Source: Bacteroidota bacterium (lineage in GTDB: Bacteria > Bacteroidota > Bacteroidia > B-17B0 > Aurantibacillaceae). Taken from it: DNA of 64,000 nt. A program made the position numbers and the translations under genes. The notes beneath the pieces were generated by a model that had not been told where the DNA came from, ran no database searches, and worked only from the letters and a program-made list of their open reading frames with translations. Positions within the stretch are counted from its first letter, which is position 1. Each line of letters starts with the position of its first letter. Positions 30,019-47,783 of this stretch are shown in pieces. The stretch is taken from positions 62,001-126,000 of the forward strand of contig JAJNDK010000004.1 of NCBI GenBank assembly GCA_021156365.1, in the 5' to 3' direction.

Positions 30019-33000
30019 AACAAAAAAAGAACTTATTAATGAAATAAACGCACTTAAAAAAGAACTGCGTAAAAAGAATACTCTGCCTTCCCCGGTAGCT
30101 ATTGGACCAAAAAAATCCACCCCAGGCAAAAAAGCAAAGGAAGTAGATCCGGTTAGTTTTGAGAATATGCCTTTTGGGTACTGTCTTTTTGATGAGAACC
30201 GGGTATACTACATGAACAAGGAAGCAGTAAAAACCATGCGTCTTCCAAAAAACAAACAACAACATTTAGAGAAGCTTTGTATCTACGATTTCATCAACAA
30301 AGAATTCCATTCCCGGATCAAAAAGATGAACAGGGATATAATGAAAGGAAAGACGTTCAATGGCGTGGAATTTAAATGTACCGATTCCAAAGGAAAAGTA
30401 CTTGATATAGAGTGCCATTCCAGGTCGGTGTATTACCAGGGAAAAAAGCTGCAGCAATCATTTTTCAAAAACATCTCCGATAAAAAAACAGCCCAGCTGG
30501 AGCTGGAACGCGCAAAGAATAATTTCGAAGAGATCGTTTCGAAAATAGATGAAGTGGTATTTTACTACAATCGTGTAGAGCACCGGATCGAATACATTTC
30601 CAGCCAGCTCTACAACCTGGTGGGTATCAAAGCAGCAGATTACATAAAGAATCCAAAAATGTCCGTGGGTCTTGCACACCCGGATGATCTGCCAAAATTA
30701 TTCAAGGCAAATGAAGAGCTGAACAAAACAAAGAAGCCGCAGAACTTTACGTATCGTATGTTCCATAAGAAACAGAAAAGGTATGTATGGATAGAAGAAA
30801 AAATATTCCCGCAGTTCGATAAAAACGGACACCACATTGCAAATCTTGGTATTTCGAGGGACGTAACGGAACAGATCGAACAAAAAGAACAGTTAAGACA
30901 AAGCGAGGAAAAATTCAGGCTGCTGGCCGAAAATGCCAGTGATGTGATCTTTTCCTACATGTTCAAACCGTATCCCCATTATTCGTATATCAGCCCTTCC
31001 ATGGAGAAGATAACGGGCTACCCGCTGAAGAATTTTTACAAAGACCCCTATTTTGGTTTCAAAATAACCCACCCGGATGACAGGAACAAACCGGCGGTGG
31101 TGGAAACGCAACGAACACTGAAAGAGAACCTCGATAATTATGAAGATATAGAAAAGGCGCAGGTTGTACGTTTTGTAAGAAAGGACGGAAAGACTGTGTG
31201 GCTCGAAACACGCTATACCCAAATAAAGAACGGTGACGAGCATATCGGGCAGGAAGGGATCTCGAGGGATATTACCGCACAGAAAGAAGCGGAGCTGGAA
31301 CTGGAAGAAAAAGAAAGGACTATCCGGAACCTCTTCAACAACCTTCCGGGCATGGCGTACCGCTGTCTCAATGATAAGCACTGGAGCATGCAGTTCCTCA
31401 GTGATGGTTGTTATGAGCTTACGGGATACAAACCAAAAGACCTGATCAATAACCACAATAAATCCTATTCGGACATTGTGCATCCCGAGGACCGAATGCT
31501 GGGCAAAGACGATATTTATTTTGCCATTAAGAACAAAACGGTTTTTGAGATCGAATACCGGATCGTTTCCAAGCACAACAAAATAATCTGGGTTTGGGAA
31601 AAAGGGGAAGGGATCTATAACGATAAAGGCGATCTGCTCTACATCGAGGGGTTTATAACCGATATTACCGAACGGAAAATATTTGAGCAGGAGCTGAACA
31701 GGAAATGGCAGGATTACAGGAACCTCATAGATACACTGCCTATCGGGATCATTATTCACGACAAGGGAAATGTGCTGCTTTCCAATAAAATTGCCCGAAA
31801 AATGGGCGGTATAGAAGACAGCCAGGATATTACGAAGATCAACCTGTATAATTTTCTTTCGAGGAGCGATAAATCGGTGGCAGAAGAAAAGATCCGGGCA
31901 GTGCTGAGCGGCGAAGAATCCAAACCAATTGTATACCCGATAACCAATACCAAGAATCAAAAGCTCTATGTGCGGATCAGCGCCAACCACGTATTTTTCA
32001 ATGGGAAAGATGTGGTGCAGATCAGTGCGGAAGATCTTACACAGGAAATACAATTAGAAAAGGAAAAAGAAAGGGCTCAGCGTGCGGAGACAACCAACAT
32101 TGTGTTGCAGCGTGAGATCCAGCAACGGATAGATACCGAGCGACAGCTGGAGCACACCAAAAATTACCTGCAGCTGCTTATCAATTCTTCTCTCGATATG
32201 ATCTCGGCAAATGACCGTAACGGAAATATTACCGAGATAAACGAGGCAGGACTGAAAACATTTGGTTATAAGCAGGAAGAACTGATAGGAAAAAAAGCAA
32301 CCTTATTGTTTGCCGGCACCCAACAAGATCCGGAGGCTGCAAAGCTGCTGATCAAAAACGGTTATTTTGTAGGAGAGGTAAAAAACAGGCGAAAGAACGG
32401 GGAAGAATTCACCAGCTTCCTTTCTGCATCGGTGCTGCGAAACGAAGAAGGGGAGATCATCGGAACCATGGGTATTTCCAGGGACATCACCGTTCAGAAA
32501 CAGCGCGAAAAATTGTTGCAGGAACGACAGGAACAGATCATCCAGCAATCGTCCCGTATCAATGCTATTTTCGAAAGCTCTTCGCATTTGGTATGGACCG
32601 TAGACAAGGAATACAGGGTGAGTACCTATAACTCCAATTTTGCCACGGTCCTGAAGGAAAAATACAAGCTTGGTATCAAACCATTCGATAAGGTCCACGA
32701 ATTGATCTCCGACAAAAAAGAGCGGGCAGCTTATTTGGATTACTGGAAACCATTGTACGATCGTGTATTTAACGGGGAAGTGATCAAAACGGAACGCCTG
32801 GACCGCGATAAGAACGGGAATGAGCTTTACCGTCTCATATACCTGAACCCCATCTACAACAATAAAAAAGAGATCATCGAGATCTCCTGCCTGGCCAATG
32901 ATATTACGGATATCAAGAAGTATGAAAGACAGATCATCGAACAGTCTTCCAAGCTGAAAGCGATCTTTGAGAACGGTAATCAGCTCTTCTGGACCGTGAA

Positions 33001-34744
33001 CAAAGACCGTGAGCTGGTTACTTTCAATCAAAAATATTCGGAAGCTATTTTCGACATCTATGGCTTCCACCCGGAAATGGGAAAAGAGCTAAGAGCGGCA
33101 GGGAAGGAAAAAGTGGAAAAAAATTATTACGATTTCTGGGGCGAGAAATACGGAGAGGTTTTTTCGCAAAAAAGGACCATCAATTTTGTTACGGAGCGAA
33201 AAACAAAAAGTGCTAAGATTATTTACCGTCAGATCTTCCTCTACCCTATTTTCAATGATAGGAAAGAGATCATCGAGGTCGGCGGAATGGGCATGGATAT
33301 TACCGACCTGAAGTATTACCAGGAGAAAACGATAGAGCAGGCAGCCAAGCTCAATGCGATCATCGATAATTCCCATCATAAGATCTGGTCTTTCAACACG
33401 AATCAGGAGATCACATCGAGCAACCGGAATTTTGATGACTTCATCGAATCGGTATTTGGTGTCCGGCCTAAGATCGGTGATGCTATGAATAAGCCGCCAT
33501 TCATGAGTGTTCCGCAAAACAATGATGTGTTCAGTGAAAATGCGGCAAAGGTATTCAACGGTGAAACCGCGGAATTCATTTATTCCATTGAAAGAGAAAA
33601 TGAAGAGAAGATCTGGCTTGAGACCTTCTTTGCCCCGATCAAAGACAAGGATGGAAACATTGTGGAAATATCAGCAATCGCCAACGACATCACCCTGCGC
33701 CGGCAGATAGAAGATGAGAAGAACCGCCAGGCGGCCCTCATCAAAGCGATCTTCGACAGCTCTTCACATCTCATTTTTACGATCAACAAAAATTACGAGA
33801 TCACCTCCTTCAATAAGAACTATTACAACCATGTGCTCGAGAACCACGGGCAGGAGACCTATGTGGGCAAATCATTGATGGATGGTGGCCTGAAGAACGA
33901 TATGCCAAGGCATTTTATTGAATGGAAGGAACGCCATGATTCGGTGATCTCCGGAAAACCCTCGTATTATAAAAACATGGCAAGGCGCCCTAACGGCGAC
34001 CAGGTGTTTTTTGAAACCTTCCTCGATCCGGTATACCTGCCCAGCGGCGGCATTGAAGAGGTTTCCTACATTTCACTGGATATCACGGATAAATACCTCG
34101 CAGAAGAACAGATCAAGAGCTCCCTCAAGGAAAAAGACATCCTGTTGAAAGAAGTGCATCACCGGGTGAAAAACAACCTGCAGGTTATTTCCAGTATCCT
34201 CAACCTGCAATCGACCTATGTAAGGGATGAAAAAACCCTGTACATTCTTCGTGAGTGTCAGAACAGGATCAAGTCGATGGCCTTTATTCACGAGGCTTTG
34301 TACCAGAATAAGAATTTCTCGGAGATCCCGTTCAACGACTATCTGATCATGCTGGTGAAGAATCTTTTCCAGACATACAATGTGGATCATTCCAACGTAA
34401 AGCTGAACTTTGATATCGATCCGGTGTTCCTGAATCTGGATACTTCCATACCTTGTGGGCTTATTGTAAACGAATTAGTATCAAATTCGTTTAAATATGC
34501 TTTTCCGGATAATAAACAAGGATTTATTTTTATATCTTTGAAAAAACAAAAAAACGACGTATGTCTGATAATCAAAGACAACGGCGTTGGTTTGCCAAAC
34601 GAAATCGATTTTAAGAACACAGAGAGCCTCGGACTTCAACTGGTGGTTACACTGGTAGAACAGATTGGCGGGAACATAAAACTTGACAATACGAACGGAA
34701 CCAAATTTGAAATAACCTTTAAACAAACAGAAAAAAATGTCTAA
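30002..34744 (+). CDS. Multi-PAS histidine kinase, HisKA_2 type
   Basis: I start at ATG 30002, which overlaps the MORN gene stop and gives 1580 residues; a start at 29933 would add 23 unlikely residues. A basic coiled coil opens the protein. About ten consecutive PAS domains follow to residue ~1370. PAS 2-4 and 6 have clear PAC endings of ISRDIT type, and PAS 7-10 are close relatives that each start with a (S/A)xxxxAIFxxSxxL pattern. The kinase has an H-box [11 protein letters not shown], typical of HisKA_2/HWE-like enzymes, and an ATPase domain with [12 protein letters not shown] and DNGVGLP. No membrane helix or signal peptide is visible, so it is cytoplasmic. It overlaps the LytTR regulator gene by 8 bases; the two are probably partners. 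Confidence 0.92.
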
Positions 34745-35492
34745 GACAAATATTTTAGTTGTAGAAGATGAAAGTATCGTTTCTAAAGATATTCAAAACA
34801 GTTTGAAAAAACTGGGTTACAACGTTATTGGAGCAAGCAACAACGGTGAGGACGCTATCGTCCTGGCCCGTGAACATCACCCGGACCTGGTGCTGATGGA
34901 CATCATGCTGAAAGGCGAAATGAGCGGTATCGATGCTGCTGACGTTATCCGTAAAGAATTGAACATCCCGGTTATCTTCCTCACAGCCTATGCCGACGAA
35001 AGCACACTGGCCAAGGCGAAGATCACAGAACCTTACGGTTATATCCTGAAGCCATTCAAAGAGATCGACCTCCACTCTTCTATCGAGATGGCGATCTACA
35101 AGCACAAAAAAGTAAGCGAGATCAAAAAAGAGCGCGACTTCCTGTACTCACTCGTGGAGAACAAAGAAGGAGCAAAAGATATCCTGTTCGTTAAATCCAA
35201 CAGCCGCCTGGTGAAAGTAAACACCAACGATATTTTCTATATCGAGGCCCTGAAAGATTATGTGGTGATCAACACCGAGCTTACACGCTACACCATTCAC
35301 AGCACCATGAAAGACATTGAAAAACGCCTTGCTCCCAACGAATTTATGCGGGTGCATCGTTCTTTCATTGTACGTATCGATAAGATCGTAGCGATCGAGA
35401 ACCACAACCTGGTGTTGGAAAAAGATAAAAAGTCCGTTCCTATTGGTGGTTCCTACAAAGACGAACTACTGCAACGTCTCAATATGGTTTAA
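34737..35492 (+). CDS. LytTR-family response regulator
   Basis: The 251-residue protein has a receiver domain (1-120) with phosphoacceptor Asp55 in [11 protein letters not shown], an acidic pair at Glu10/Asp11, a conserved Thr in VIFLTAYAD and Lys in YILKPF. A LytTR DNA-binding domain (about 155-251) carries [21 protein letters not shown] and [10 protein letters not shown]. The start ATG overlaps the end of the PAS kinase gene by 8 bases, so translational coupling and a cognate kinase-regulator relationship are likely. LytTR proteins bind direct repeats as dimers. No obvious target site was recognised in the window. Confidence 0.95.
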
Positions 35493-36035: not shown

Positions 36036-38258
36036 ATGCGTAAATTTTTACTTCTTGCCATCTTTTCACCACTCATGGGCCTGGCTCAAAACGGATTCAA
36101 AGTGTTGAATGAAACCAACTCTTTCATAGAGCTGGAATATACGCTGAATGACTATTCACTAAGCAACATCACTTACAAAGGGCAAAATTGTCAAAGCATT
36201 AAAGCCCCAGGCACCGTTCCTTTGCTGGAAAAAGGCGCTCCGGAACTGCGTAGCTCCAGTGTTGCCTTGAGTATTCCAGGTACCGGTAATCCTACAATAG
36301 AAATCATTTCCGGGCAGCTGTCTCTCAAAAGCAATGTGAACCTATTGCCCTCCAAAGGAAGCCTGAAACGCAACGTGGATCCGGCAGGCATTGATTATAC
36401 ATTCGGCGAAAGCTACACAAAAAATGCATTTTATAGCGTTCAGCAAGCAAGGCTGGGAAAGGCTTTCCAGCTCCGTAACGAAAGAGGTATTGTGCTTTCC
36501 GTTTCTCCGTTCCAGTACAACCCGCAGGCAAAAGCACTGGTTGTGTACACATCCATGAAAATACGCGTGTATTACAACGAGGGAACTGCAGGACAGAACG
36601 AGCGCGCAGGAGCAAAGGCTGTGTACTCAAAAGATGAACAGGCATTGTATCAGAACAAATTCATTAATTACCACGCTACCACACAATACGTACCTATCCC
36701 CGAACAGGGAAGCATGCTGGTGATCTGCGCAGATAACTATCTTTCTACCATGAAGCCTTTTGTTGACTGGAAAAATCAGAAAGGGATCAAAACTGTTATG
36801 GTACCTACCAGTCAGACTGGCGCAGACCAAACCTCGCTTTACAATTTTATTCAGGGCTATTACTCATCCAATCCCGATCTGCTGTACCTTTTGCTGGTAG
36901 GCGATCACGAGGACATCAACACCGCTGACCTTGGGCAGTCGGGCTCCGAAACATTATGGTCCGATACCTGGTACGCGTTTCAGAATGGATCGGATGTATA
37001 TCCTGAGCTATTTGTAGGACGTTTTTCAGGCGAATACATTCCGCATATACAAACCATGGTGGATCGTACGCTTGAATATGAAAAGAACCCAGCTCCAGGA
37101 AGCTGGTACAGTACTGCTATTGGTATCGGATCGGGCGAAGGAGATGGGTATGGCGACGATGGAGAAGCCGATTGGCAACACGAACGGAATATGGGAACCA
37201 AGTTGCTGAACTGGGGCTATACCACTTTTCATGAATTCTATGACGGAAGCCGTGGTGGAAACGATGCGGCCGGCGATCCGACCCCTGCCATGGTAGAAAC
37301 GGCGGTGAACGATGGAGCGTCACTGTTTATGTACACAGGTCATGGCTGGGATGCCGGCTGTGTTACTTCCAATTATACTACTGCTGAAGTGGCGGCTGCA
37401 ACCAACAACGGTAAATATCCGTTTGTGGTATCGGTAGCCTGTAACAATGGCACTTTTGCCAATGCCAATTGTTTTGCCGAAGAGTTTGTGCGTGCGGCCA
37501 ATGTTAACGGACCTACCGGCTCCATTGCCTGTGCCGGATCTTCTATCCTGATGGCCTGGGCAGAGCCGATGTCGGTGCAGGACGAGATCGTGGAGATCCT
37601 TACCGATCAGTATGCAAACAATAAGAAAATAACCCTGGGTGGGTTGTTCTATAACGGAGGTTTAAAAATGCTGGACGATTACCAGAATGCTACAGCTGAT
37701 GAGGTAATGGAAACCTGGGTGCTTTTCGGTGATCCGAGCTGCGTGATGCGCTCCCGTGAGCCTTCGCAGATAACAGCAAACCTTGATCCCTGCTATCCTC
37801 CCGGAAACAATTTAATGACGATCACTTCTCCGGATGAAGGAGCCTTAGTGGCGCTGTCTGTAAATGATACCTTACTTGGAACAGCTTATGTGCAAAACGG
37901 AACAGCTTCTGTATCCTATACGACTACCAGTACTTCTCCCCTGCTCGTCACGATCAGCGGATACAATATGCTTCCTTTCCAGGGAACCGTAAACCCTTGC
38001 GCGATAGGGCTTGCAAACGTTTCGGCTACTAATGGAATTAAGATCTACCCGAATCCGGCGCATGATATGCTACAGGTAGAGACACCTGGCGCTATGTTCG
38101 ACATAAAGATCATTGACGCATTGGGTCGCGTTGTGTACAATGCAACGGCTTTGCAATCAAAAGAAAGTATTAATACAAGCGCTATTGCAAAAGGGATCTA
38201 TACTGTTCAGCTTGCATCGGAAGGCAGACAATACATTCAGAAGCTGGTGATCGATTAA
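36036..38258 (+). CDS. Gingipain-type C25 cysteine protease, T9SS-secreted
   Basis: The 740-residue protein has a signal peptide ending at GLAQ (about residue 18). A beta-rich pro-region runs to about 215, with the C25 catalytic domain at about 220-590. The likely dyad is His436 in YTGHGWDAG and Cys469 in SVACNNG, spaced as in gingipains. An Ig-like domain (about 590-660) and a C-terminal sorting domain starting at IKIYPNPAHDML (about 670) follow. The family includes gingipains and PorU, the T9SS sortase. The presence of a sorting domain and the short C-terminal Ig domain fit a secreted protease or PorU-like enzyme; I cannot separate these safely. It stands alone. Confidence 0.9.
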   Translation: MRKFLLLAIFSPLMGLAQNGFKVLNETNSFIELEYTLNDYSLSNITYKGQNCQSIKAPGTVPLLEKGAPELRSSSVALSIPGTGNPTIEIISGQLSLKSNVNLLPSKGSLKRNVDPAGIDYTFGESYTKNAFYSVQQARLGKAFQLRNERGIVLSVSPFQYNPQAKALVVYTSMKIRVYYNEGTAGQNERAGAKAVYSKDEQALYQNKFINYHATTQYVPIPEQGSMLVICADNYLSTMKPFVDWKNQKGIKTVMVPTSQTGADQTSLYNFIQGYYSSNPDLLYLLLVGDHEDINTADLGQSGSETLWSDTWYAFQNGSDVYPELFVGRFSGEYIPHIQTMVDRTLEYEKNPAPGSWYSTAIGIGSGEGDGYGDDGEADWQHERNMGTKLLNWGYTTFHEFYDGSRGGNDAAGDPTPAMVETAVNDGASLFMYTGHGWDAGCVTSNYTTAEVAAATNNGKYPFVVSVACNNGTFANANCFAEEFVRAANVNGPTGSIACAGSSILMAWAEPMSVQDEIVEILTDQYANNKKITLGGLFYNGGLKMLDDYQNATADEVMETWVLFGDPSCVMRSREPSQITANLDPCYPPGNNLMTITSPDEGALVALSVNDTLLGTAYVQNGTASVSYTTTSTSPLLVTISGYNMLPFQGTVNPCAIGLANVSATNGIKIYPNPAHDMLQVETPGAMFDIKIIDALGRVVYNATALQSKESINTSAIAKGIYTVQLASEGRQYIQKLVID

Positions 38259-38431
38259 GCCTGTACGGCCTCTGTTTACAGTGCATTTATTCATTCCTTG
38301 TTTGTAATTTTACAAGTATTTATGAATTACACACCCACTTGTGCGTATAAATACTTCAGTGGTAAAGATATAAATCGTAAATCCTTCCTATCTTTGCAGA
38401 AATTTTCTAACCTGTAATTCTACATCTTTCG

Positions 38432-40327
38432 TTGAAATCTTCTTACGATATAATTGTTGTTGGCGCCGGTCATGCCGGTTGTGAGGCAGCAGCAGCAGCG
38501 GCTAATATGGGATCCAAAGTATTATTGATCACCATGAACATGCAGACCATTGCACAAATGAGCTGTAATCCTGCCATGGGCGGAATTGCCAAGGGCCAGA
38601 TCGTTCGTGAGATAGATGCATTGGGCGGGTACTCGGGTATCATTTCCGACAAGTCTGCTATACAGTTCCGGATGCTCAACCGCAGCAAAGGACCTGCCAT
38701 GTGGAGTCCACGCACACAGAATGACCGGATGTTATTTGCATCGGAGTGGCGCTATATGCTGGAGCAAACTCCCAATGTGGATTTCTGGCAGGATATGGTG
38801 AAAGGTCTACTGATTTCTGAGGATGGAAAACGTGTGGAAGGAGTGATCAGCGGAATGGGCATCGAATTCAAAGCAAAAGCTGTGGTGCTCACCAACGGCA
38901 CTTTTCTGAACGGAGTTATACATATTGGTGAGAAACAATTTGGCGGTGGCCGTACCGGTGAAAGTGCTGCTTACGGAATTACCGAGCAATTGGTGAAACT
39001 GGGTTTCGAGAGTGGCCGTATGAAAACAGGAACTCCTCCGCGTATTGATGGCCGCTCGCTGAATTATGGTAAAATGGAAGTACAGGGAGGTGATGAAGTG
39101 GTAGATAAATTCTCCTACCTGGACAATACTTCTCCTTTTATTCCAAATGAAAAAGGTGAAGTAAAGAAGCAGATCCCCTGCCACGTAACATATACCAACC
39201 AGGATGTGCACGATATCCTGAAAACCGGTTTCGAAAAGTCGCCGATGTTTGCGGGACGGATCCAGGGATTAGGGCCACGTTATTGTCCAAGTATTGAAGA
39301 TAAGATCACGCGTTTTTCCGAAAGGGAACGTCATCAGCTTTTTGTGGAACCGGAAGGATGGAATACAGTGGAGATCTATGTGAATGGATTTTCCACTTCT
39401 CTGCCTGAAGATGTGCAACAAAAAGCATTGGAATTGATCCCGGGTTTTGAGAAAGTGAAGATGTTCCGTCCGGGATACGCGATCGAATATGACTACTTCC
39501 CTCCTACCCAGCTCAAAACCACATTGGAAACGCATCTAATTGATAACCTGTATTTTGCAGGGCAAATAAATGGAACAACCGGATATGAAGAAGCAGCTTG
39601 CCAGGGATTGATGGCAGGTATAAATGCGCACCTTAAAGTGAACGAGAAAGAAGCGTTTGTTCTGAACAGGTACGATGCATATATCGGAGTTTTGATTGAC
39701 GACCTTGTAACAAAAGGAACGGAAGAGCCCTACCGCATGTTTACATCGAGAGCTGAATACCGTTTGCTATTACGCCAGGATAATGCGGATGTTCGACTTA
39801 CTCCTCTTTCCAATAAGATTGGTTTGGCTTCTGACAAACGATTGGCTTCTGTAAAAATAAAGATCAAATCGGCAGAAGAAGTTGTTTCCTTTTTCAAAAA
39901 TACAAGTGCTGAACCTGCGGAAGTAAATCCATATTTAGAAAGTTTGGACTCTGCTCCTGTTTCTCAAAAAATTCGTTATTTCAATATTTTATCCCGGCCC
40001 AATGTTTCGATACGTGAAATGGCAAAACACTGTAAGGAGCTTTCGGTATTTGTAGCTCCTATCAAAACCGATGCTATTGATGAAGCGGAGAACCTGATCA
40101 AGTATGAAAATTATATTATAAAGGAAAAGGAGAATGCGGATAAAATGAAACGTCTGGATGATTATATTATCAGGGAAGATTTTGATTATTCTTTAATATC
40201 CAGCCTTGGAGCAGAAGCCCGTGATAAATTCAAGAAATTCCGTCCTCGTACAATTGGACAAGCGAGCCGACTAAGTGGTGTAAATCCTTCCGATATTTCC
40301 ATCCTGCTTGTGCATTTGGGTAAATAG
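38432..40327 (+). CDS. mnmG: tRNA uridine 5-carboxymethylaminomethyl modification enzyme, FAD subunit
   Basis: The 631-residue protein matches MnmG (GidA) throughout. The FAD-binding motif VVGAGHAGCEAA is at the N-terminus. CNPAMGGIAKGQIVREIDAL and GTFLNGVIHIG follow, then the second nucleotide motif GQINGTTGYEEAA, and the C-terminal MnmE-binding helical domain. With MnmE it modifies U34 of several tRNAs. The start is TTG 38432; a TATCTTTG promoter element lies at 38389-38396. In many bacteria this gene sits close to the replication origin. Here the first parS site begins at the base directly after its TAG stop, in line with that. Confidence 0.97.
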   Translation: MKSSYDIIVVGAGHAGCEAAAAAANMGSKVLLITMNMQTIAQMSCNPAMGGIAKGQIVREIDALGGYSGIISDKSAIQFRMLNRSKGPAMWSPRTQNDRMLFASEWRYMLEQTPNVDFWQDMVKGLLISEDGKRVEGVISGMGIEFKAKAVVLTNGTFLNGVIHIGEKQFGGGRTGESAAYGITEQLVKLGFESGRMKTGTPPRIDGRSLNYGKMEVQGGDEVVDKFSYLDNTSPFIPNEKGEVKKQIPCHVTYTNQDVHDILKTGFEKSPMFAGRIQGLGPRYCPSIEDKITRFSERERHQLFVEPEGWNTVEIYVNGFSTSLPEDVQQKALELIPGFEKVKMFRPGYAIEYDYFPPTQLKTTLETHLIDNLYFAGQINGTTGYEEAACQGLMAGINAHLKVNEKEAFVLNRYDAYIGVLIDDLVTKGTEEPYRMFTSRAEYRLLLRQDNADVRLTPLSNKIGLASDKRLASVKIKIKSAEEVVSFFKNTSAEPAEVNPYLESLDSAPVSQKIRYFNILSRPNVSIREMAKHCKELSVFVAPIKTDAIDEAENLIKYENYIIKEKENADKMKRLDDYIIREDFDYSLISSLGAEARDKFKKFRPRTIGQASRLSGVNPSDISILLVHLGK

Positions 40328-40343
40328 TGTTCCACGTGAAACA
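40328..40343. promoter_or_regulatory. parS site 1 (ParB-binding centromere element)
   Basis: TGTTCCACGTGAAACA matches 15 of 16 positions of the near-universal bacterial parS sequence. It begins directly after the mnmG stop codon. Confidence 0.9.
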
Positions 40344-40363
40344 TTGAAAAGCCAGTATACAAA

Positions 40364-41029
40364 TTGAAACGAAAGAAGAGAATACTAATTAGTATATTGT
40401 TTTTAGGGCTGCTTGGGATAGTTGCCTTATTATTTATAAAGAGAGGCTTTAACCCTAATCCGGAGTATACAGTTGGGCAAAAGATAGACTCTCTTAACGG
40501 CGTTTATATTTATTACAATGGTGGAGTTGGTAATATAGAAGAAAGAAACACCTCTCCTGACGGATACAATATCGGACTCAAATATCAATGTGTTGAGTTT
40601 GTAAAACGATATTATTACGAATTCTATAAGCACAAGATGCCGGATTCCTATGGCAACGCAAAGGACTTTTTTGATCCATCCCTGAAGGATGGTAGAATAA
40701 ACAAAGCGAGAAATCTCTTTCAGTTTACGAATCCAAGCGATTCTTTTCCCAGGGTTGGGGATCTTATTATAATGGATGGTCATCCCGGAAATCCCTATGG
40801 ACATGTAGCGATTATATCCAGGGTAGAAGAAAAGGGAATAGAAATTATCCAGCAGAACCCAGGACCCTTTGCTCCTTCCCGTGTCACCATACCTCTTATT
40901 TGTATTGATTGTTCAACAACAATTATTGATGAGAAAAGAGGATTAACTACTTTTAAAGGCAAATATCGAATTGCCCTGGATAGAGTTTTGGGTTGGTTAA
41001 GAAAGCAAGATCAGGCGGATAGAATATAA
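40364..41029 (+). CDS. CHAP-domain amidase/peptidase, membrane anchored
   Basis: The 221-residue protein starts at TTG 40364; the first codons encode KRKKR and then one membrane segment (about 7-25), an uncleaved anchor or signal. Residues 60-205 form a CHAP domain, with the catalytic Cys in YQCVEFVKRYY and the catalytic His in YGHVAIIS. CHAP enzymes cleave peptidoglycan cross-bridges or glutathionylspermidine-type amides. This form (QCVEFVKR, NxxxFF) resembles the latter and small cell-wall amidases. It lies between parS sites 1 and 2, 36 bases after mnmG, and may be co-transcribed with it. Confidence 0.85.
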   Translation: MKRKKRILISILFLGLLGIVALLFIKRGFNPNPEYTVGQKIDSLNGVYIYYNGGVGNIEERNTSPDGYNIGLKYQCVEFVKRYYYEFYKHKMPDSYGNAKDFFDPSLKDGRINKARNLFQFTNPSDSFPRVGDLIIMDGHPGNPYGHVAIISRVEEKGIEIIQQNPGPFAPSRVTIPLICIDCSTTIIDEKRGLTTFKGKYRIALDRVLGWLRKQDQADRI

Positions 41030-41030
41030 A

Positions 41031-41046
41031 TGTTCCACGTGAAACA
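41031..41046. promoter_or_regulatory. parS site 2
   Basis: TGTTCCACGTGAAACA, identical to site 1 (15 of 16 positions to the consensus). It begins one base after the CHAP gene stop codon. Confidence 0.9.
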
Positions 41047-41062
41047 ATTTTAAATAGTATAT

Positions 41063-41956
41063 ATGGAGACAGTACAAAAGTGTGTAGTTTGTAATTCGGA
41101 TCAGCAGGAGCTATTTCTGACCTGCGAGGACTTTACCGTATCCCATGAGAAGTTTACCATTCAGTCCTGCAAAAGTTGTGGCTTCCGCTTCACCTCTCCC
41201 CGACCGATTGCAGATGAGATCGGTCCCTACTATAAATCGGAAGAATACATTTCCCATTCCGATACAAGGAAAGGATTGATATCTAAACTGTATCATTGGA
41301 TTCGCTCTTATACACTAATTAAAAAACTGCAGCTCGTAATGTTCCATTCCGTTAAGCGGGGAACGATCCTGGACTTTGGATGCGGAACCGGGGCATTCTT
41401 ATCTGTATGCAAAAAGAACAAATGGAATGTCTTCGGCATAGAACCCGATCCGGATGCAAGGAAGATTGCAAAGGACACCAATGAAATTTCCTCCGCCTCC
41501 TCCATCCATGAATTCAATTCGAAGTTTCCGGATGAGCGTTTTGATGCTATTACTATGTGGCATGTGCTCGAACATATTCATGACCTGGAAGGATTCTTTG
41601 CTTTTGTAAACCAACGCCTGAATCCGAAAGGAGCATTGATCATTGCTGTACCAAACTGTTCTTCTTATGATGCGAAGAAGTATTCAGAGTTTTGGGCAGC
41701 TTATGATGTACCCCGACATTTATATCACTTCACACCAAAGGACATGAAAACACTCTTTGAGAAGCGGGGATACAAACAGGTAGATCTGCGCCCGATGATT
41801 TTCGATTCTTTTTATGTGTCGATGCTAAGTGAGAAGTACAAGCACGGAAAGATCAGCTATCTGAGTGCCTTCTTCACAGGTCTCCGCTCAAACATAAAGG
41901 CAAACAAAACCGGAAAGGAATTTTCCTCGCAGATATACGTTTTTAAGAAAGCATAG
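41063..41956 (+). CDS. Class I SAM-dependent methyltransferase with zinc ribbon
   Basis: The 297-residue protein opens with a zinc-ribbon-like region holding two Cys pairs, CVVC and CKSCGFRF. A class I methyltransferase domain (about 90-230) follows, with motif I ILDFGCGTGAFL, an acidic motif II in FGIEPDPDA, and MWHVLEHIHD. A C-terminal helical tail follows. Proteins with this layout methylate diverse small molecules or sugars, often in cell-surface gene clusters. The substrate cannot be inferred. It sits between parS sites 2 and 3 and is followed by a strong terminator. Confidence 0.87.
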   Translation: METVQKCVVCNSDQQELFLTCEDFTVSHEKFTIQSCKSCGFRFTSPRPIADEIGPYYKSEEYISHSDTRKGLISKLYHWIRSYTLIKKLQLVMFHSVKRGTILDFGCGTGAFLSVCKKNKWNVFGIEPDPDARKIAKDTNEISSASSIHEFNSKFPDERFDAITMWHVLEHIHDLEGFFAFVNQRLNPKGALIIAVPNCSSYDAKKYSEFWAAYDVPRHLYHFTPKDMKTLFEKRGYKQVDLRPMIFDSFYVSMLSEKYKHGKISYLSAFFTGLRSNIKANKTGKEFSSQIYVFKKA

Positions 41957-41960
41957 ATAT

Positions 41961-41976
41961 TGTTTCACGTGAAACA
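41961..41976. promoter_or_regulatory. parS site 3, perfect consensus
   Basis: TGTTTCACGTGAAACA is a perfect 16-base palindrome and matches the parS consensus at every position. It begins four bases after the methyltransferase stop codon. Confidence 0.95.
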
Positions 41977-41979
41977 TGC

Positions 41980-42012
41980 AGAGCCCGGTATAGAACCGGG
42001 CTCTTTCTTTTT
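41980..42012 (+). terminator. Rho-independent terminator after the methyltransferase gene
   Basis: AGAGCCCGGT (41980-41989) and ACCGGGCTCT (41995-42004) form a ten-pair stem with a five-base loop, followed by TTCTTTTTT. It ends rightward transcription of mnmG-CHAP-methyltransferase before the gene-free region. Confidence 0.9.
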
Positions 42013-42510
42013 TGTGACAAGTCCTCCCCTATCGATCAGGTGCTAATATGAATCAACCCTTTCTTTAGGATGTCTTTTCCCGGTTTTTTCCTGGATTCAT
42101 TCTTCTCCTTTTTATTGATTTGATCAATATGAGTTGTAGCCTAATCAGGAATACCACAAACTATATTGGGCCTTCTTTGAACAGTAAAATTCGATTGAAC
42201 GACCCATGACAGAATTTAATTACGAGCCGGCTAAACGCTATCCAAACCTTTCTCTTTTGGGAGAGTTCCACTCAGAAGAGATATGATGTCGCAGGGTTGA
42301 TTTCTTTTCAGAAAGAGTATCCGTTCCTTTTGACCCCGTATTTCTTTCGCCTATATATTTCCCTGTCCTGTAAGGAAAAAAAGTCATTTTGTGATCTCGT
42401 TTAATTCAACCTGAAAGCCGGTTTATTTCTAATCGTTCCGTGCTCTCTTTTCAATGTCTCCTCTTGTGGTAAAAGATCCTTATGGTAATTTATATTCAAC
42501 CCCCCCGATA

Positions 42511-42526
42511 TGTTTCACATGAAACA
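42511..42526. promoter_or_regulatory. parS site 4
   Basis: TGTTTCACATGAAACA, 15 of 16 to the consensus; one central base differs. Confidence 0.85.
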
Positions 42527-42619
42527 AAACCTTGCTGCCATTCCCAGGTTATTCGCTTTGACTTTAGAACAAGAAATGTTCTTCGCGGAATGCATGAGGT
42601 AAAATTCGTTAAGGACGAG

Positions 42620-42638
42620 AATTTGTGTTTCACAAATT
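42620..42638. repeat. Perfect inverted repeat in the gene-free region
   Basis: AATTTGTG (42620-42627) and CACAAATT (42631-42638) flank TTT. The right part also contains a parS-like half-site (TGTTTCAC, 42626-42633), so it may be a decayed parS or a separate protein-binding site. Confidence 0.55.
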
Positions 42639-42724
42639 AGAAAGTAGGAGGGAGTTCTTCAGGGGACTTTTGCCAGGATGCGCTGGATAGAATACTCGCT
42701 TTCCCGATCAGAACCACCAAAGAA

Positions 42725-42740
42725 TGTTTCATTCGAAACA
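42725..42740. promoter_or_regulatory. parS-like site 5, degenerate centre
   Basis: TGTTTCATTCGAAACA keeps both outer arms (GTTTC and GAAAC) but has lost the central CACGTG; 13 of 16 positions match. Binding by ParB is doubtful. Confidence 0.5.
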
Positions 42741-42938
42741 AAGTCTTATTTTGTTCTCTTCTGTTTTATGCCCCGTGGCTTTTATAGTTCTCTTCCGGGA
42801 CCTATTTGAAACAAATCCCTTTTTAGGAAGATCCACCTTTAATGAATGGAGAAACCCGTGGGAAATCATCAGGCATATGGAACAAACTCTTTTTTAGTAT
42901 TCTCTTCAGAAAGCGTGTCAAGCGAATTACCCAAAGAA

Positions 42939-42954
42939 AGTTTCACGTGGAACG
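42939..42954. promoter_or_regulatory. parS site 6
   Basis: AGTTTCACGTGGAACG matches 13 of 16 positions, and 13 of 14 in the core. In reverse orientation its core variant is the same GTTCC form as in sites 1 and 2. Confidence 0.75.
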
Positions 42955-43097
42955 AAGTCTTTGTCTGTCCTTCCATTTCAACTCTGTCTTGAAACACTCT
43001 TTCGAGTCAGGGAGAGTTTTGATGGAGGATCAGAAACTCATTTATTGAAGTTTATTTCTCAGGCATAGCACTCTGCTATTCTGAACAAATCAAAGTA

Positions 43098-43113
43098 GGT
43101 TTCACGTGGAACG
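43098..43113. promoter_or_regulatory. parS site 7
   Basis: GGTTTCACGTGGAACG has the same core as site 6: 13 of 14 core positions match the consensus. Confidence 0.75.
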
Positions 43114-43281
43114 GAATCGTATGTTTTATTGACCAAACCTGACAGCCGTGTTTTTCTTTCAGGTCCAAATGATGTAAACCTTTTCAGGAGGATTGACATT
43201 ACGCGAGCAGGAGGAAGAACAATCTTCAGCAGATAACAACTTTTTGATCCTATGCCGCATTTTCCAAAACAGACTCAAGAC

Positions 43282-43297
43282 GGTTTCACGTGAAACA
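43282..43297. promoter_or_regulatory. parS site 8
   Basis: GGTTTCACGTGAAACA has a perfect 14-base core (43283-43296) and matches 15 of 16 positions overall. Confidence 0.88.
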
Positions 43298-44507
43298 AGA
43301 TTGGCCTTGTCTATTCCTTTAATTTGGTTTTTTTTGAGAAGACCAAATAGAGGCTCAATGACCTATACTAAAAAGAGATCATGTCTTCCCGGAAGAATAT
43401 GATAAAGCAGGGAACGGGTTCCATACTTCTTTGATGCTAATCGACCCTCTGCATTTTATCCTACTGCTTTCGCTGGTACCTTTCATCTTCTTCTTAAACA
43501 CAACCGACACAAAATCCGCTTGGATCATTCTGGCTTCTTTCGAAAGACTTGTCGTAATCTATCTCCTGTTTAAATACATCCGGCTGACCAGTACGGGGGT
43601 ATAAAAACGGAGTGGCAAATGAATACCCGAATCCTGGCAGACAAAAGCAGGGGAGAGAATATCTATCGGAACAGCAAACAATACCACAAAGAAAAGAGCT
43701 GCTTTCTGTGTTTAGGAAACAAGGTCCAGACGAATTGGATAGCATGCGCAGATATCGAAGCAAAGAAATGAGAAAGATCATCTTTTGGCTCGCCTGTTTT
43801 TTATTACCCTACTGCAGTTGCTTGTTTTTCTGGTCCATTTATTTAAACAAACGGAACCAAAACAGTTGACGGTTTTCCTGTTCTTTTCTCTTGTCTACAC
43901 AGAAAACCTGTCTTCGGATTTGTTTCTGGTAGGCGTTCCATAGGTGAAGCTATTCGTTCGGGAGAAAGCAGATCCTGGAAATGGAGATTTCTGACAAAGA
44001 TGGAATTGAATACCAGGTGAGATCCGCTTATCGCCATTTACAGAAACCTGTCGGTGCCTGTATTATTTTTTATAGTGGGGGAAACTTTTGATTAGATCAG
44101 GAAGAGTACACGCTGGTTCAAAGCAATGAAAAGATAAAGTTGTTATCCTTCTGACGCCGCGAATCGTTATCGGGATAGAGATGTGGTTCCTTTTCTTCCC
44201 CGGTTCTTATCCAATGATCTTCCCCATCAAGCTACCAATCCTGAGGCATGTATTCTGAACAAATCTTTTAACGGTCTTTTGTATCTGTTCTCAGAGTAGG
44301 AAGGAAACTGTGAGTTATGATTCTCTCCTTCACTTCATTTATCATTTAATTTATGGGTCTGGCCGGAACACCACTAGGTGGAATCTGATTCTTCCAAATC
44401 TCCACTGATGCGATTTGTCGGGATCTCTTTGTACATTCTTTGAGCTCTTCATCCCGAACTGCCAGCCCATAACTCATCATCCAAAACCAGGATACAATAA
44501 ATCAAGC

Positions 44508-44536
44508 AAGGATCCATACCGATCGGGATCCTTTTC
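44508..44536 (+). terminator. Terminator-like hairpin in the gene-free region
   Basis: AAGGATCC (44508-44515) and GGATCCTT (44526-44533) form an eight-pair stem with a ten-base loop, followed by TTC. The T-tract is short, so it may be a weak terminator or a structural palindrome. If real, it implies rightward transcription through this region. Confidence 0.4.
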
Positions 44537-44728
44537 TCATAGTGTACCATACAATGCCTTGTTACGGAAAAATTGAATTTCAATTAAACCTGTGCAGAGC
44601 TCATCCTCGCTCAAGTGAAACCAAATCTTCAGGTTTACAAACCAAACCTATCCTACAACATCTTCAGATAGAACAATCTCCATTAGAGCCAATCCCCAAT
44701 CATGGAAAAAAGTAGTAGCTTCTACTGA

Positions 44729-44744
44729 AGTTTCACGTGAAACA
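44729..44744. promoter_or_regulatory. parS site 9
   Basis: AGTTTCACGTGAAACA has a perfect 14-base core (44730-44743) and matches 15 of 16 positions. It is the rightmost site and lies about 1.4 kb from site 8. Confidence 0.88.
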
Positions 44745-45073
44745 TGTCCTTTAATAATTTGGTTTATCTCATCTAACTATATTCAGTGAGCTGGGACCTG
44801 AAAATAAAATTTTGATATCTCTAAACGTTATTAACAATATAGAGGAATGAGAATTTGGATAAAGGGAATCATTGAGAATATTCAATGGACAAAAAATCAA
44901 AATCCTGGATAAATTCTCCGTTTTTCAGTTTTTCCGGGTATTTGTCTGCGGGAGATCGAAAAGCTTCTGAAAATAGCCGGAAATGCAAAATAAGCATTGT
45001 TTGAGTGGAATATGAACTCCGGAAAATGATTGATATATTAAACCCAGGATCCTTTTCTGGACTTTTATTTGTA

Positions 45074-45113
45074 TTAGTTTAATCTAACAAATATAATTGT
45101 CTTATCTAACAAA
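45074..45113 (+). promoter_or_regulatory. Candidate autoregulatory operator of the DtxR-type gene
   Basis: TTAGTTTAATCTAA (45074-45087) is a near-palindrome of the TTAG...CTAA type bound by DtxR/MntR proteins. The half-site ATCTAACAAA occurs at 45082-45091 and again at 45104-45113, exactly 22 bases apart, about two helical turns. The start codon is 52 bases further on. Autoregulation is inferred. Confidence 0.5.
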
Positions 45114-45164
45114 CAAGTCTTTACTATATATTTACTAATTTAGAGGCCTTCATACTTATCAACA

Positions 45165-45821
45165 ATGAATTCGCTCACCGAAGAAAATTACCTGAAAGCC
45201 TTGTTCAACTTGGCTATTGAGAATGGCGAGGTGAGCGTGAACGAGCTGAGCAAGCACCTGCAGATCAAAATGCCTACAGTGACCAGCATGATGAAGAAGC
45301 TGGCCGAAAAAAAGCTGGTGAGTTATGAGAGCTATAAACCGCTACGCCTTACCGAGAAGGGCAGGAGGGAGGCTGCTCTCGTGATCCGGAAACATCGCCT
45401 TACGGAGATGTTCCTGGTAGAAAAAATGGGATTTGGCTGGGAGCAGGTGCACGAAATCGCCGAACAAATAGAACATATACATTCCCCGGAATTCTTCGAA
45501 AAAATGGATGAGCTCTTAGGTTTCCCCAGGTTCGATCCGCATGGCTCGCCTATCCCCGACAAAACCGGTAAAATGGAGTGGCTCCATTACAGCAAACTAA
45601 GTGATTGTAAAATAGGCGACACTGTCAGATTAGCTGCAGTAACGCACACTTCTGAAGATTTCCTGAAATTCCTGAATGCCCGGGAACTAAAGCTAGGGTT
45701 GAAAATAAAAATAAAAACCATTGAGAGCTTTGATGGAAGCATGCTGGTAAGTTATGGAAAGCACAGCTCCGAACACCTCAGCGGGCTTGTTTGCGAACGG
45801 TTGCTGGTAGAAAAAGAATAA
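45165..45821 (+). CDS. DtxR/MntR-family metal-dependent repressor
   Basis: The 218-residue protein has the DtxR layout. A winged helix (about 1-62) contains EENYLKALFNLA and the recognition helix segment MPTVTSMMKKLAEKKLV. The metal-binding dimerisation domain (about 63-140) carries RKHRLTEMFLVEKMGF, ending in HEIAEQIEHIHS and DPHGSPIPD. A FeoA/SH3-like domain (about 150-218) completes it. The His/Glu/Cys-type ligand positions fit a Mn or Fe sensor; which metal cannot be decided here. It begins right of the parS cluster with an AT-rich promoter and candidate operator. The phosphotransferase gene follows after three bases, probably in the same transcript. Confidence 0.93.
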   Translation: MNSLTEENYLKALFNLAIENGEVSVNELSKHLQIKMPTVTSMMKKLAEKKLVSYESYKPLRLTEKGRREAALVIRKHRLTEMFLVEKMGFGWEQVHEIAEQIEHIHSPEFFEKMDELLGFPRFDPHGSPIPDKTGKMEWLHYSKLSDCKIGDTVRLAAVTHTSEDFLKFLNARELKLGLKIKIKTIESFDGSMLVSYGKHSSEHLSGLVCERLLVEKE

Positions 45822-45824
45822 GCT

Positions 45825-47783
45825 GTGCGCAGGATCTTCGAAAAAATAATCAGGCATATACCGCCTTACATACGCTTGCTGATCAGGCTGCATCTGTTCA
45901 GCATTTTCCTGTTTTTCCTGTTCCGGCTGGTTTTTTACTGGTACAACCGATCGGCAGATACGGCTGATGTGCCGTGGTTCGATACCTTTATGGCTTTCAG
46001 GATGGGTGTGGAGTTTGACAGTGCTGTACTCTGCTGGATCGCCTTTCTGCCGGTCCTTATCTTTTCTTTTGCTTACTTCCTGCGCGATCGTTTTGTGCTC
46101 ATTTACAAAGCCGGGTTTGTGATCTATCTTATTCTACTTTTCATTTATTGTTTTGTTTACACGGCAGATATTCCGTATTACAGGCAATTCGGAAGCCACC
46201 TCAACCGATCGGCCCTGCTTTGGAACGAAAGCCCGGCTTTTGTGGCCGGCCTGGTATTCGGCAGCTTTTCCTACTGGGGTTTTCTTCTTGTTTTCCTTAG
46301 CCTGGGTATATTTGCGTTTATCATGCTCCGGCACTTTTTCCTTACTTTTTCCCGTAGTCTCCCGGAGAACAGGCCGCACGGGATCGTTTGGACGCTTGGC
46401 TATTTCCTCTTGCTGGCGGGTATTGTTACGCTTGGTGCCCGGGGCCGCTCTTCCGAACGTTCGGGGCTGCACGAAGGGCTTTCTATTGTGTCTGCGCATC
46501 CCTATACCAATGTCGTGGCCATCAATCCTAACTTCACCTTCTGGAAATCGCTGTTCTATAACAAACGCAGGGAATACAAGGTGCCGGAGAACATCAACGA
46601 TGATATCGCTTATACACGTAGTTACCTGGGTGTTCCGGGATCTTTTGCTGTTTCCATCGACCGGCGCGTGCAATCCGATAGCGTTCCCCGCAGGCTGAAT
46701 GTAGTAGTGGTGGTGATGGAAAGCATGTCGATATACAAAATGGGCTATTACCAAGGCAAGCGCCTGACACCGAATCTGGAGAAGCTTGCAAAGGAATCTG
46801 TCTTTTTCGATCATTTCTTTTCTTCCGGCATTCACACCTATAACGGATTGTTTTCTACTACAAGTGGTTATCCGGGCATTCTCGATGAAAAGAGCCTGAA
46901 GAGCTACGTAAAAGCGCCTTTTGACGGCATCGGAATGCTGCTGAAAAAGCAAGGATATGAGACCTGGTTCTATACCACGCACGATCCGCATTTCGACAAT
47001 ATGAACGGATTTTTTACACAGAATGGCTTTGATCACTTTATCAGCCAGTACGAATTTAATTTCACGCAGGCCGAAAGCTCATTAGGCGTGCCCGATCATT
47101 TACTTTTGGATAAAATGCTCGAAACGATCAATACGCGCGACACCACTAAGCCCTTTCTTTCCGTGTTGATGACGGCTTCGGATCATGGTCCCTGGAAGAT
47201 ACCGAAGGATATACCTTTCAAACCCAACAGCGGCGACGAACAGGACAACTGTACACTGTATGCGGATTGGTCCATTGGGCGTTTTATGGAAGCTGCGAAA
47301 AAAGAATCCTGGTATGCAAATACGCTTTTTATTTTTGTAGGCGATCACGGGCTCGCTAAAGGGCACACCTACGAAATGCCGATCAGTTACAACCATGTTG
47401 CCTGTATTATGCACCGGCCGGGTATTTTACAGCCTGATACCATTTCTTCGCCCTGCTATCAACCCGATATCACTCCAACAGTAATGGGGATATTACGGAT
47501 ACCCTATACAAACACAACATTTGGAGTGGATGTGATGAAGGAAAAGCACCGATTTGTGATGTTCAGCGCTGATGACAAGATCGGTTGTGTGAATGATCAG
47601 GGTTATTATTATTACAAAACGCTCTCGAACGGGCAGCGTTACCTGCGCAGGTACGAATCGCTGGATCCCGTAAACTATATTGAAACCCGGAAAGAGCTCG
47701 CAGACAGCATGGACAAAGACGTACAGGCTGTGTTTGAAACGGCGCGCTATTTCATCCACCAAAAAAACTACCTCTATGAATAA
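45825..47783 (+). CDS. LTA-synthase-family membrane phosphotransferase (sulfatase fold)
   Basis: The 652-residue protein starts at GTG 45825, three bases after the regulator gene. Five N-terminal membrane helices (about 15-205) are followed by an extracytoplasmic alkaline-phosphatase-like domain. Metal and catalytic residues are visible as VVMESM, the nucleophile region GIHTYNGLFSTTSGYPG with Thr, and FVGDHGLAKG near the end. In Gram-negative bacteria such enzymes transfer phosphoglycerol or phosphoethanolamine to surface glycans or lipids. The substrate here is unknown. It overlaps the next lipoprotein gene by eight bases. Confidence 0.92.
   Translation: MRRIFEKIIRHIPPYIRLLIRLHLFSIFLFFLFRLVFYWYNRSADTADVPWFDTFMAFRMGVEFDSAVLCWIAFLPVLIFSFAYFLRDRFVLIYKAGFVIYLILLFIYCFVYTADIPYYRQFGSHLNRSALLWNESPAFVAGLVFGSFSYWGFLLVFLSLGIFAFIMLRHFFLTFSRSLPENRPHGIVWTLGYFLLLAGIVTLGARGRSSERSGLHEGLSIVSAHPYTNVVAINPNFTFWKSLFYNKRREYKVPENINDDIAYTRSYLGVPGSFAVSIDRRVQSDSVPRRLNVVVVVMESMSIYKMGYYQGKRLTPNLEKLAKESVFFDHFFSSGIHTYNGLFSTTSGYPGILDEKSLKSYVKAPFDGIGMLLKKQGYETWFYTTHDPHFDNMNGFFTQNGFDHFISQYEFNFTQAESSLGVPDHLLLDKMLETINTRDTTKPFLSVLMTASDHGPWKIPKDIPFKPNSGDEQDNCTLYADWSIGRFMEAAKKESWYANTLFIFVGDHGLAKGHTYEMPISYNHVACIMHRPGILQPDTISSPCYQPDITPTVMGILRIPYTNTTFGVDVMKEKHRFVMFSADDKIGCVNDQGYYYYKTLSNGQRYLRRYESLDPVNYIETRKELADSMDKDVQAVFETARYFIHQKNYLYE

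What the first reader, a model, noticed from the sequence alone, without database searches (positions are those of the whole stretch)
40328..44744. Cluster of nine parS centromere sites next to mnmG
Nine copies or close variants of TGTTTCACGTGAAACA lie within 4.4 kb: one perfect, five with 15 of 16 matches, two sharing a 13-of-14 core, one with a degenerate centre. A random 4.4-kb stretch would not be expected to contain even one 14-of-16 match. ParB loading at parS and spreading from it is well established for chromosomes; nine sites in 4.4 kb is dense compared with the usual one to several per origin region. mnmG is often near the origin. This marks the window as the partition centromere and suggests the origin is close.
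Basis: partly seen in the sequence, partly recalled or inferred. Interest (0 to 1): 0.85.

Follow-up and report, generated by a model that had tools for sequence, protein, structure and literature searches.

The report
Chromosome centromere beside the mnmG gene
This uncultured Bacteroidota bacterium carries a tight cluster of DNA sites that mark where its chromosome is pulled apart at division; such sites sit beside the same gene in most relatives examined, so the cluster is a dense example of a known kind rather than something new.

Summary
Confirmed: nine parS-like 16-mers at 40328-44744. Eight are the eight best-scoring 16-mers of the 397-kb contig; the ninth (42725, degenerate centre) is unsupported. 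All six sites with at most one mismatch in the 5.31-Mb genome lie here; parA-parB are on another contig. The centromere reading is well supported. In relatives, 54 of 65 such sites lie within 5 kb of mnmG. An origin nearby is likely but not located: the GC-skew minimum is at or near parS in two complete relatives and one family member, and weakly here, about 45 kb upstream; dnaA is elsewhere; no DnaA-box cluster was found. Two points go further. Six of the palindromes (five credible) lie in a 3.2-kb non-coding, single-copy stretch with almost no alignable counterpart in the relatives' loci. And ScpA and ScpB were found in none of the 37 family genomes, nor a full-length SMC here. Density tops the family loci examined but is exceeded in a Flavobacterium. 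A new member of a known kind.

The parts
38432..40327 (+). mnmG (gidA), tRNA-modifying enzyme; neighbour to which parS is linked in relatives
   Evidence: Pfam GIDA 533.5 bits; ORF
40328..40343 (.). parS 1, TGTTCCACGTGAAACA, starts at the base after the mnmG stop codon
   Evidence: matrix score 28.8
40364..41029 (+). CHAP-domain protein
   Evidence: Pfam CHAP 52.1 bits
41031..41046 (.). parS 2, TGTTCCACGTGAAACA, one base between it and the CHAP stop codon
   Evidence: score 28.8
41063..41956 (+). SAM-dependent methyltransferase; conserved neighbour of mnmG in the family loci
   Evidence: Pfam Methyltransf_23 106.6 bits; synteny
41961..41976 (.). parS 3, perfect palindrome, four bases between it and the methyltransferase stop codon
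   Evidence: score 28.1
41977..45164 (.). non-coding spacer (39% G+C) holding sites 4-9; single copy in the genome; only a 32-bp match, upstream of the DtxR-like gene of G001, in 25 loci of relatives
42511..42526 (.). parS 4, TGTTTCACATGAAACA
   Evidence: score 22.6
42725..42740 (.). parS-like palindrome with degenerate centre, TGTTTCATTCGAAACA; doubtful
   Evidence: not in the top 16 of the contig
42939..42954 (.). parS 6, AGTTTCACGTGGAACG
   Evidence: score 22.9
43098..43113 (.). parS 7, GGTTTCACGTGGAACG
   Evidence: score 21.9
43282..43297 (.). parS 8, GGTTTCACGTGAAACA
   Evidence: score 24.0
44729..44744 (.). parS 9, AGTTTCACGTGAAACA
   Evidence: score 25.0
45165..45821 (+). DtxR-like iron-dependent repressor, right border of the spacer; a homologue is also found beside the cluster in both genus siblings (G001, G002)
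   Evidence: Pfam Fe_dep_repr_C 106.6 bits

Best explanation
The cluster is the chromosomal centromere of a ParABS system. ParB (299 aa, on contig C10 next to ParA) is expected to bind the parS sites as a dimer, close into a CTP-loaded clamp, slide into the flanking DNA, and so build a partition complex over mnmG and its neighbours that ParA pulls apart soon after the origin region is copied. Shown here: the sites, their uniqueness, the par genes, the linkage to mnmG in relatives, and the approximate coincidence with the GC-skew minimum. Inferred from the ParB family: binding, clamp loading, sliding and segregation. The palindromes in the 3.2-kb spacer (six, five of them credible) look like lineage-specific additions to three older sites that follow mnmG, CHAP and the methyltransferase. 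Because SMC-ScpAB was not found, the complex probably works with ParA and not as a loader of that SMC.
For: Nine sites, six of them the only ones with at most 1 mismatch in 5.31 Mb. Eight are the top eight of the contig. parA-parB side by side with AAA_31, ParB_N and HTH_ParB domains; ParB matches solved chromosomal ParB, Noc and Spo0J chains. ParB in 53 of 60 genomes, 50 of 50 good ones, and parS-type sites in 57 of 60, 48 of 50 good ones. Outside this genome 54 of 65 sites listed are within 5 kb of mnmG, about 0.3% expected. 63 of 80 named mnmG loci have a site within 2 kb: 148 sites near versus 6 far, control centres 0 near and 1 far. Skew minimum at or near parS and away from dnaA in G060, G061 and G009.
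Against: No ParB binding data. The skew of this contig is weak and its minimum is about 45 kb away on a flat curve. No DnaA-box cluster above shuffles in the window or contig. 17 of 80 named mnmG loci have no site in the DNA held, and in G028 and G043 the sites are 21 and 88 kb from mnmG. One of the nine sites (42725) is not supported.
Confidence: 0.93

Rival explanations
1. The palindromes are operators of a transcription factor or 3'-end elements: three start 1, 2 and 5 bases after stop codons and would act on the neighbouring genes.
For: Sites 1-3 directly follow the mnmG, CHAP and methyltransferase stops; a site starting within about 12 bases of the mnmG end is kept in many family loci.
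Against: The other six lie in DNA without convincing genes. The sequence matches the parS consensus and is not a G+C-rich hairpin with a T-run. In relatives the same 16-mer also occurs inside the methyltransferase coding sequence and inside mnmG. Very few such sites occur elsewhere in the genome.
Confidence: 0.04
2. The spacer is a decayed mobile element or repeat that happens to carry copies of one palindrome.
For: Six palindromes in 2.2 kb; 76% identity over 41 nt between the copies at 42717 and 42931, spaced 214 bp, as are 42511 and 42725.
Against: No tandem array, no autocorrelation peak at the spacings, single copy in the genome, no Rfam match, no similarity of its open-frame fragments to 25 loci of relatives. 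Pfam was not run on the fragments and no wider collection was searched with the spacer.
Confidence: 0.05
3. The cluster is parS but the replication origin is not near; ParB only marks this locus.
For: No DnaA-box cluster above shuffles in the window or in contig C1; dnaA on contig C13; flat skew.
Against: Skew minima at or near parS in G060, G061 and G009 and weakly here. DnaA-box clusters within 10 kb of mnmG in 27 of 80 named loci. Published oriC predictions at mnmG in two flavobacteria.
Confidence: 0.15

Closest known systems
Chromosomal ParABS centromeres (parS of Bacillus subtilis Spo0J, Caulobacter and Pseudomonas ParB)
   Same: Same 16-bp palindrome (recalled consensus, also given in PMC10197239); ParA-ParB pair with the same domains; sites clustered in one place, apparently origin-proximal.
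   Different: The par genes are not next to the sites (other contig); SMC-ScpAB, which ParB recruits in several model species (passages of PMC7022226), was not found.
parS clusters of gut Bacteroidetes (Bacteroides caecimuris, Muribaculum intestinale; PMC10197239, passages read)
   Same: parS clusters were used with GC skew to place the origin, which does not always go with dnaA; no known condensin found in those two Bacteroidetes.
   Different: That paper does not mention mnmG (0 occurrences) and treats 12 strains of several phyla; here the linkage to mnmG is counted over 60 genomes and 80 named loci.
oriC predicted at mnmG in Mariniflexile litorale and Algorimicrobium (PMC11278836, PMC12843772; passages read)
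   Same: Origin by GC skew and Ori-Finder next to mnmG, in the first case explicitly not at dnaA.
   Different: parS was not among the terms I looked up in those two papers; the origin itself is not located in our window. A figure legend of PMC11278836 labels mnmG as ter, against its own text.

Membership tests
Chromosomal parS centromere (ParABS) | 16-bp palindrome TGTTTCACGTGAAACA or close variants | tested here: met
   eight credible sites of nine
Chromosomal parS centromere (ParABS) | Sites concentrated in one chromosomal region | tested here: met
   6 of 6 sites with at most 1 mismatch in the cluster
Chromosomal parS centromere (ParABS) | ParA and ParB of the chromosomal type in the genome | tested here: met
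   parA-parB on C10; that this ParB binds these sites is not tested
Chromosomal parS centromere (ParABS) | Location near the replication origin | tested here: inconclusive
   skew minimum about 45 kb away on a flat curve; consistent in G009, G060, G061; no DnaA-box cluster above shuffles
Chromosomal parS centromere (ParABS) | ParB binds and spreads from the sites | not testable with these tools
   needs ChIP-seq
ParB-SMC loading platform | Smc-ScpAB present | tested here: not met
   no ScpA, no ScpB, no full-length SMC; three larger candidates examined were a CheB/CheR hybrid, an OLD-like ATPase and a 550-aa RecN-sized protein, the shorter ones were not examined; MukBEF and MksBEF not tested; the genome is 98.67% complete in 23 contigs

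The most novel reading that the evidence does not exclude
In this part of the Bacteroidota the ParB-parS centromere is held next to mnmG and near the true origin regardless of where dnaA and parAB lie, and in this family it works without any SMC condensin; the window shows such an SMC-free centromere enlarging by gaining parS sites in a dedicated, fast-changing non-coding spacer.
Probability: 0.4. Interest if true: 0.55.

Novelty: new member of a known kind. Interest (0 to 1): 0.36.

Why it matters
It gives a sequence-only centromere marker, and probably an origin marker (parS beside mnmG), for Bacteroidota genomes, where dnaA can mislead. It also points to a family with parS clusters and no detectable SMC-ScpAB, where the ParA role of ParB could be tested apart from SMC loading.

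Tried and rejected
Tandem-repeat origin of the array: no array by Tandem Repeats Finder and no autocorrelation peak, despite the equal 214-bp spacings of 42511, 42725 and 42939 and the flank similarity of two copies. DnaA-box search with the recalled consensus TTATCCACA and with a matrix from relatives: nothing above shuffles on contig C1. The best stretch of the window, at 44828 beside the last parS site, scores 37.4, while maxima of five shuffled contigs are 44.2-59.8. The AT-rich divergent intergenic at about 26.8-27.3 kb was looked at as an oriC candidate; it is not among the window's eight best box stretches and was not pursued. Synteny of the skew minima of G000 and G009: only patches align, so the origin could not be pinned. 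Three SMC candidates in the own genome turned out to be other proteins; a fourth stretch held an ABC transporter-like ORF by eye. Livny et al. 2007 (J Bacteriol), the basic parS survey, is not held; I know it from citations and recall. Protein remnants in the spacer: none matching 25 loci of relatives. In the script the mnmG end of one locus without sites (L068) was set about 1.4 kb too low, which touches only the base counts.
Full report
Observation. One further match with up to 3 mismatches lies elsewhere in the window (15646). Whole-window shuffles give 0.37 matches on average, at most 2. In the 5.31-Mb genome all six sites with at most one mismatch are in this cluster; at two mismatches two lone sites appear elsewhere, against three for the reversed control. 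A matrix built from 184 sites in 80 named relatives' mnmG loci ranks eight of the nine as the eight best 16-mers of the 397-kb contig; 42725, with its degenerate centre, is not in the top 16.

Surroundings. The order is mnmG, parS, CHAP protein, parS, methyltransferase, parS, then 3.2 kb without convincing genes and with six more palindromes (five credible), then a DtxR-like repressor. Sites 1-3 start 1, 2 and 5 bases after stop codons. The longest stop-to-stop frame in the spacer is 104 residues. The spacer has no Rfam match (search of 38000-47000) and is single-copy in the genome. Against 25 loci of the family and close relatives (two of them overlap two others) it gives one match, 32 bp upstream of the repressor gene in sibling G001. 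In genus sibling G002 the corresponding gap is 1.6 kb with two sites. Many family loci carry a parS inside the methyltransferase gene. In the six such loci that I translated, it encodes the VSRGT stretch just before the SAM-binding motif; the window's gene reads VKRGT there and has no site, and G002's internal site lies elsewhere in the gene. So the window's lineage appears to have lost that internal site and gained sites in the spacer (inference).

Par genes. The genome has parA and parB side by side on contig C10. ParB has ParB_N and HTH_ParB domains (the ParB_C match is below its cut-off) and its best solved relatives are ParB, Noc and Spo0J. A second, weaker ParB-like protein on C20 sits near a DNA adenine methylase and a GmrSD-like protein and is probably not the partner (inference).

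Linkage to mnmG. The 80 named mnmG loci are the best 80 of 592 confirmed relatives in a capped list. 63 of 80 have a site (at most 1 mismatch to TGTTYCACGTGRAACA) within 2 kb of mnmG or in it, 60 of 80 within 200 bp. There are 148 sites near against 6 far, a 57-fold higher rate per base; four control palindromes give 0 near and 1 far. These loci were chosen by mnmG, so a second count starts from the sites: of 71 sites with at most 1 mismatch to the palindrome in 41 of 60 genomes, 60 lie within 5 kb of mnmG; without the window's genome 54 of 65. Of the other 11, four lie on contigs other than mnmG's in G001 and G051, where assembly breaks are likely; two are in G049, where no mnmG was found; two are truly distant (G028 21 kb, G043 88 kb); three are lone sites on other contigs (G055, G057, G059). 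With the broader pattern, 57 of 60 genomes have a site, 48 of 50 good ones; the reversed control hits 5 of 60, once each (its match list was cut, so linkage was counted only). ParB is found in 53 of 60, and in 50 of 50 good ones. The 60 genomes are the own one, 36 of its family and 23 of its class.

Origin. dnaA is not near: contig C13 here; 1.1 Mb from parS on the same contig in family member G009; 0.59 Mb away in the complete Chitinophagaceae bacterium LGM1 (G060); 1.9 Mb away in the complete Chryseobacterium sp. ZHDP1 (G061). GC skew was sampled in 20 slices of 20 kb per complete genome. In G061 the cumulative sum is lowest at the 2.95-Mb slice, flat from 2.46 to 3.2 Mb; mnmG is at 3.03 Mb. 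In G060 it is lowest at the 166-kb slice, with a second low at 3.0 Mb; mnmG is at 0.154 Mb. In G009 the minimum of the 80 kb read through is near 504 kb and the slices from 552 kb on are mostly positive; parS is at 469 kb. In the window's contig the minimum is at 57.5 kb on a flat curve that stays above it from about 90 kb on; parS is at 102-107 kb. Clusters of four or more DnaA boxes per 500 bp lie in 27 of 80 named mnmG loci, 10 of them 4.4-4.5 kb from the mnmG start, against at most 3 in 30 shuffles of each of those 27. None above shuffles was found in the window or its contig; the window's best, weak, stretch is at 44828 beside the last parS site. So 'origin near' is likely, but oriC is not located.

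SMC. ScpA and ScpB were found in the same 4 of 60 genomes, none of them among the 37 of the window's family, own genome included; 28 of those 37 are at least 90% complete and at most 5% contaminated. In seven genomes searched for the SMC head, a full-length frame of 1179-1193 aa appears in G060, G062 and G063 but not in G000, G002, G009 or G061. The bacterial SMC model reaches only 29.6 bits here, and the three larger candidates examined are other proteins. MukBEF and MksBEF were not tested. PMC10197239 reports no known condensin in two gut Bacteroidetes (passages).

Density. In a span of 4.4 kb the window has 6 sites with at most 1 and 8 with at most 2 mismatches to the variant consensus. 20 family loci have at most 5 and 6. 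Among 80 named loci, Flavobacterium sp. MC2016-06 (L083) has 11 and 13, partly by a 117-bp tandem repeat, and Terrimonas ferruginea (L053) has 5 and 9.

What is in print. In nine searches of the held library neither the listings nor the passages I read state the parS-mnmG linkage in Bacteroidota; most listed papers were not opened, and subscription papers, among them Livny et al. 2007, are not held. Origin prediction at mnmG is in print for two flavobacteria (passages), and older work lists gidA among origin genes in bacteria at large (PMC2099444, passages). A Blattabacterium paper reports an origin by skew without gidA or dnaA in that reduced genome (PMC2768785, passages). That multiple parS sites may make segregation more robust, and that one is enough in species tested, is from PMC7022226 (passages).

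Verdict. An ordinary kind of element, well identified: a dense chromosomal parS cluster. Its interest lies in the mnmG anchoring independent of dnaA, the family without detectable SMC-ScpAB, and the fast-changing spacer that holds most of the sites.

Noticed in passing
G000 and 36 family genomes: No ScpA or ScpB in any of the 37 family genomes (28 of good quality); both present together in 4 of 23 other genomes of the class.
   Followed up: partly
L083:9306-9926: 117-bp tandem repeat upstream of mnmG in Flavobacterium sp. MC2016-06; four of its units carry a parS-like TGTTCCACATGGAACA, so parS seems amplified by tandem duplication.
   Followed up: no
L041, L044, L046, L048, L060, about 370-380 bases into mnmG: parS-type site inside the mnmG coding sequence at nearly the same position in five named loci.
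   Followed up: no
G024:C2:461636-463498: mnmG homologue with 14 in-frame stops of all three kinds, parS-type sites still near it: broken gene or assembly error.
   Followed up: no
window 29933-35492: 1603-aa ORF that by eye looks like a multi-PAS sensor histidine kinase, followed by an ORF that looks like a LytTR response regulator (no family search run).
   Followed up: no
27 of 80 named mnmG loci: DnaA-box clusters at characteristic distances from the mnmG start: +4.4-4.5 kb in ten (Algoriphagus, Spirosoma and other Cytophagales), +4.5-5.9 kb in nine Chryseobacterium, -4.6 to -6.5 kb in four Chitinophaga, four others.
   Followed up: partly
window 44828-45164: Weak group of DnaA-box-like 9-mers between the last parS site and the DtxR-like gene, the best of the window but below shuffled contigs.
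   Followed up: partly
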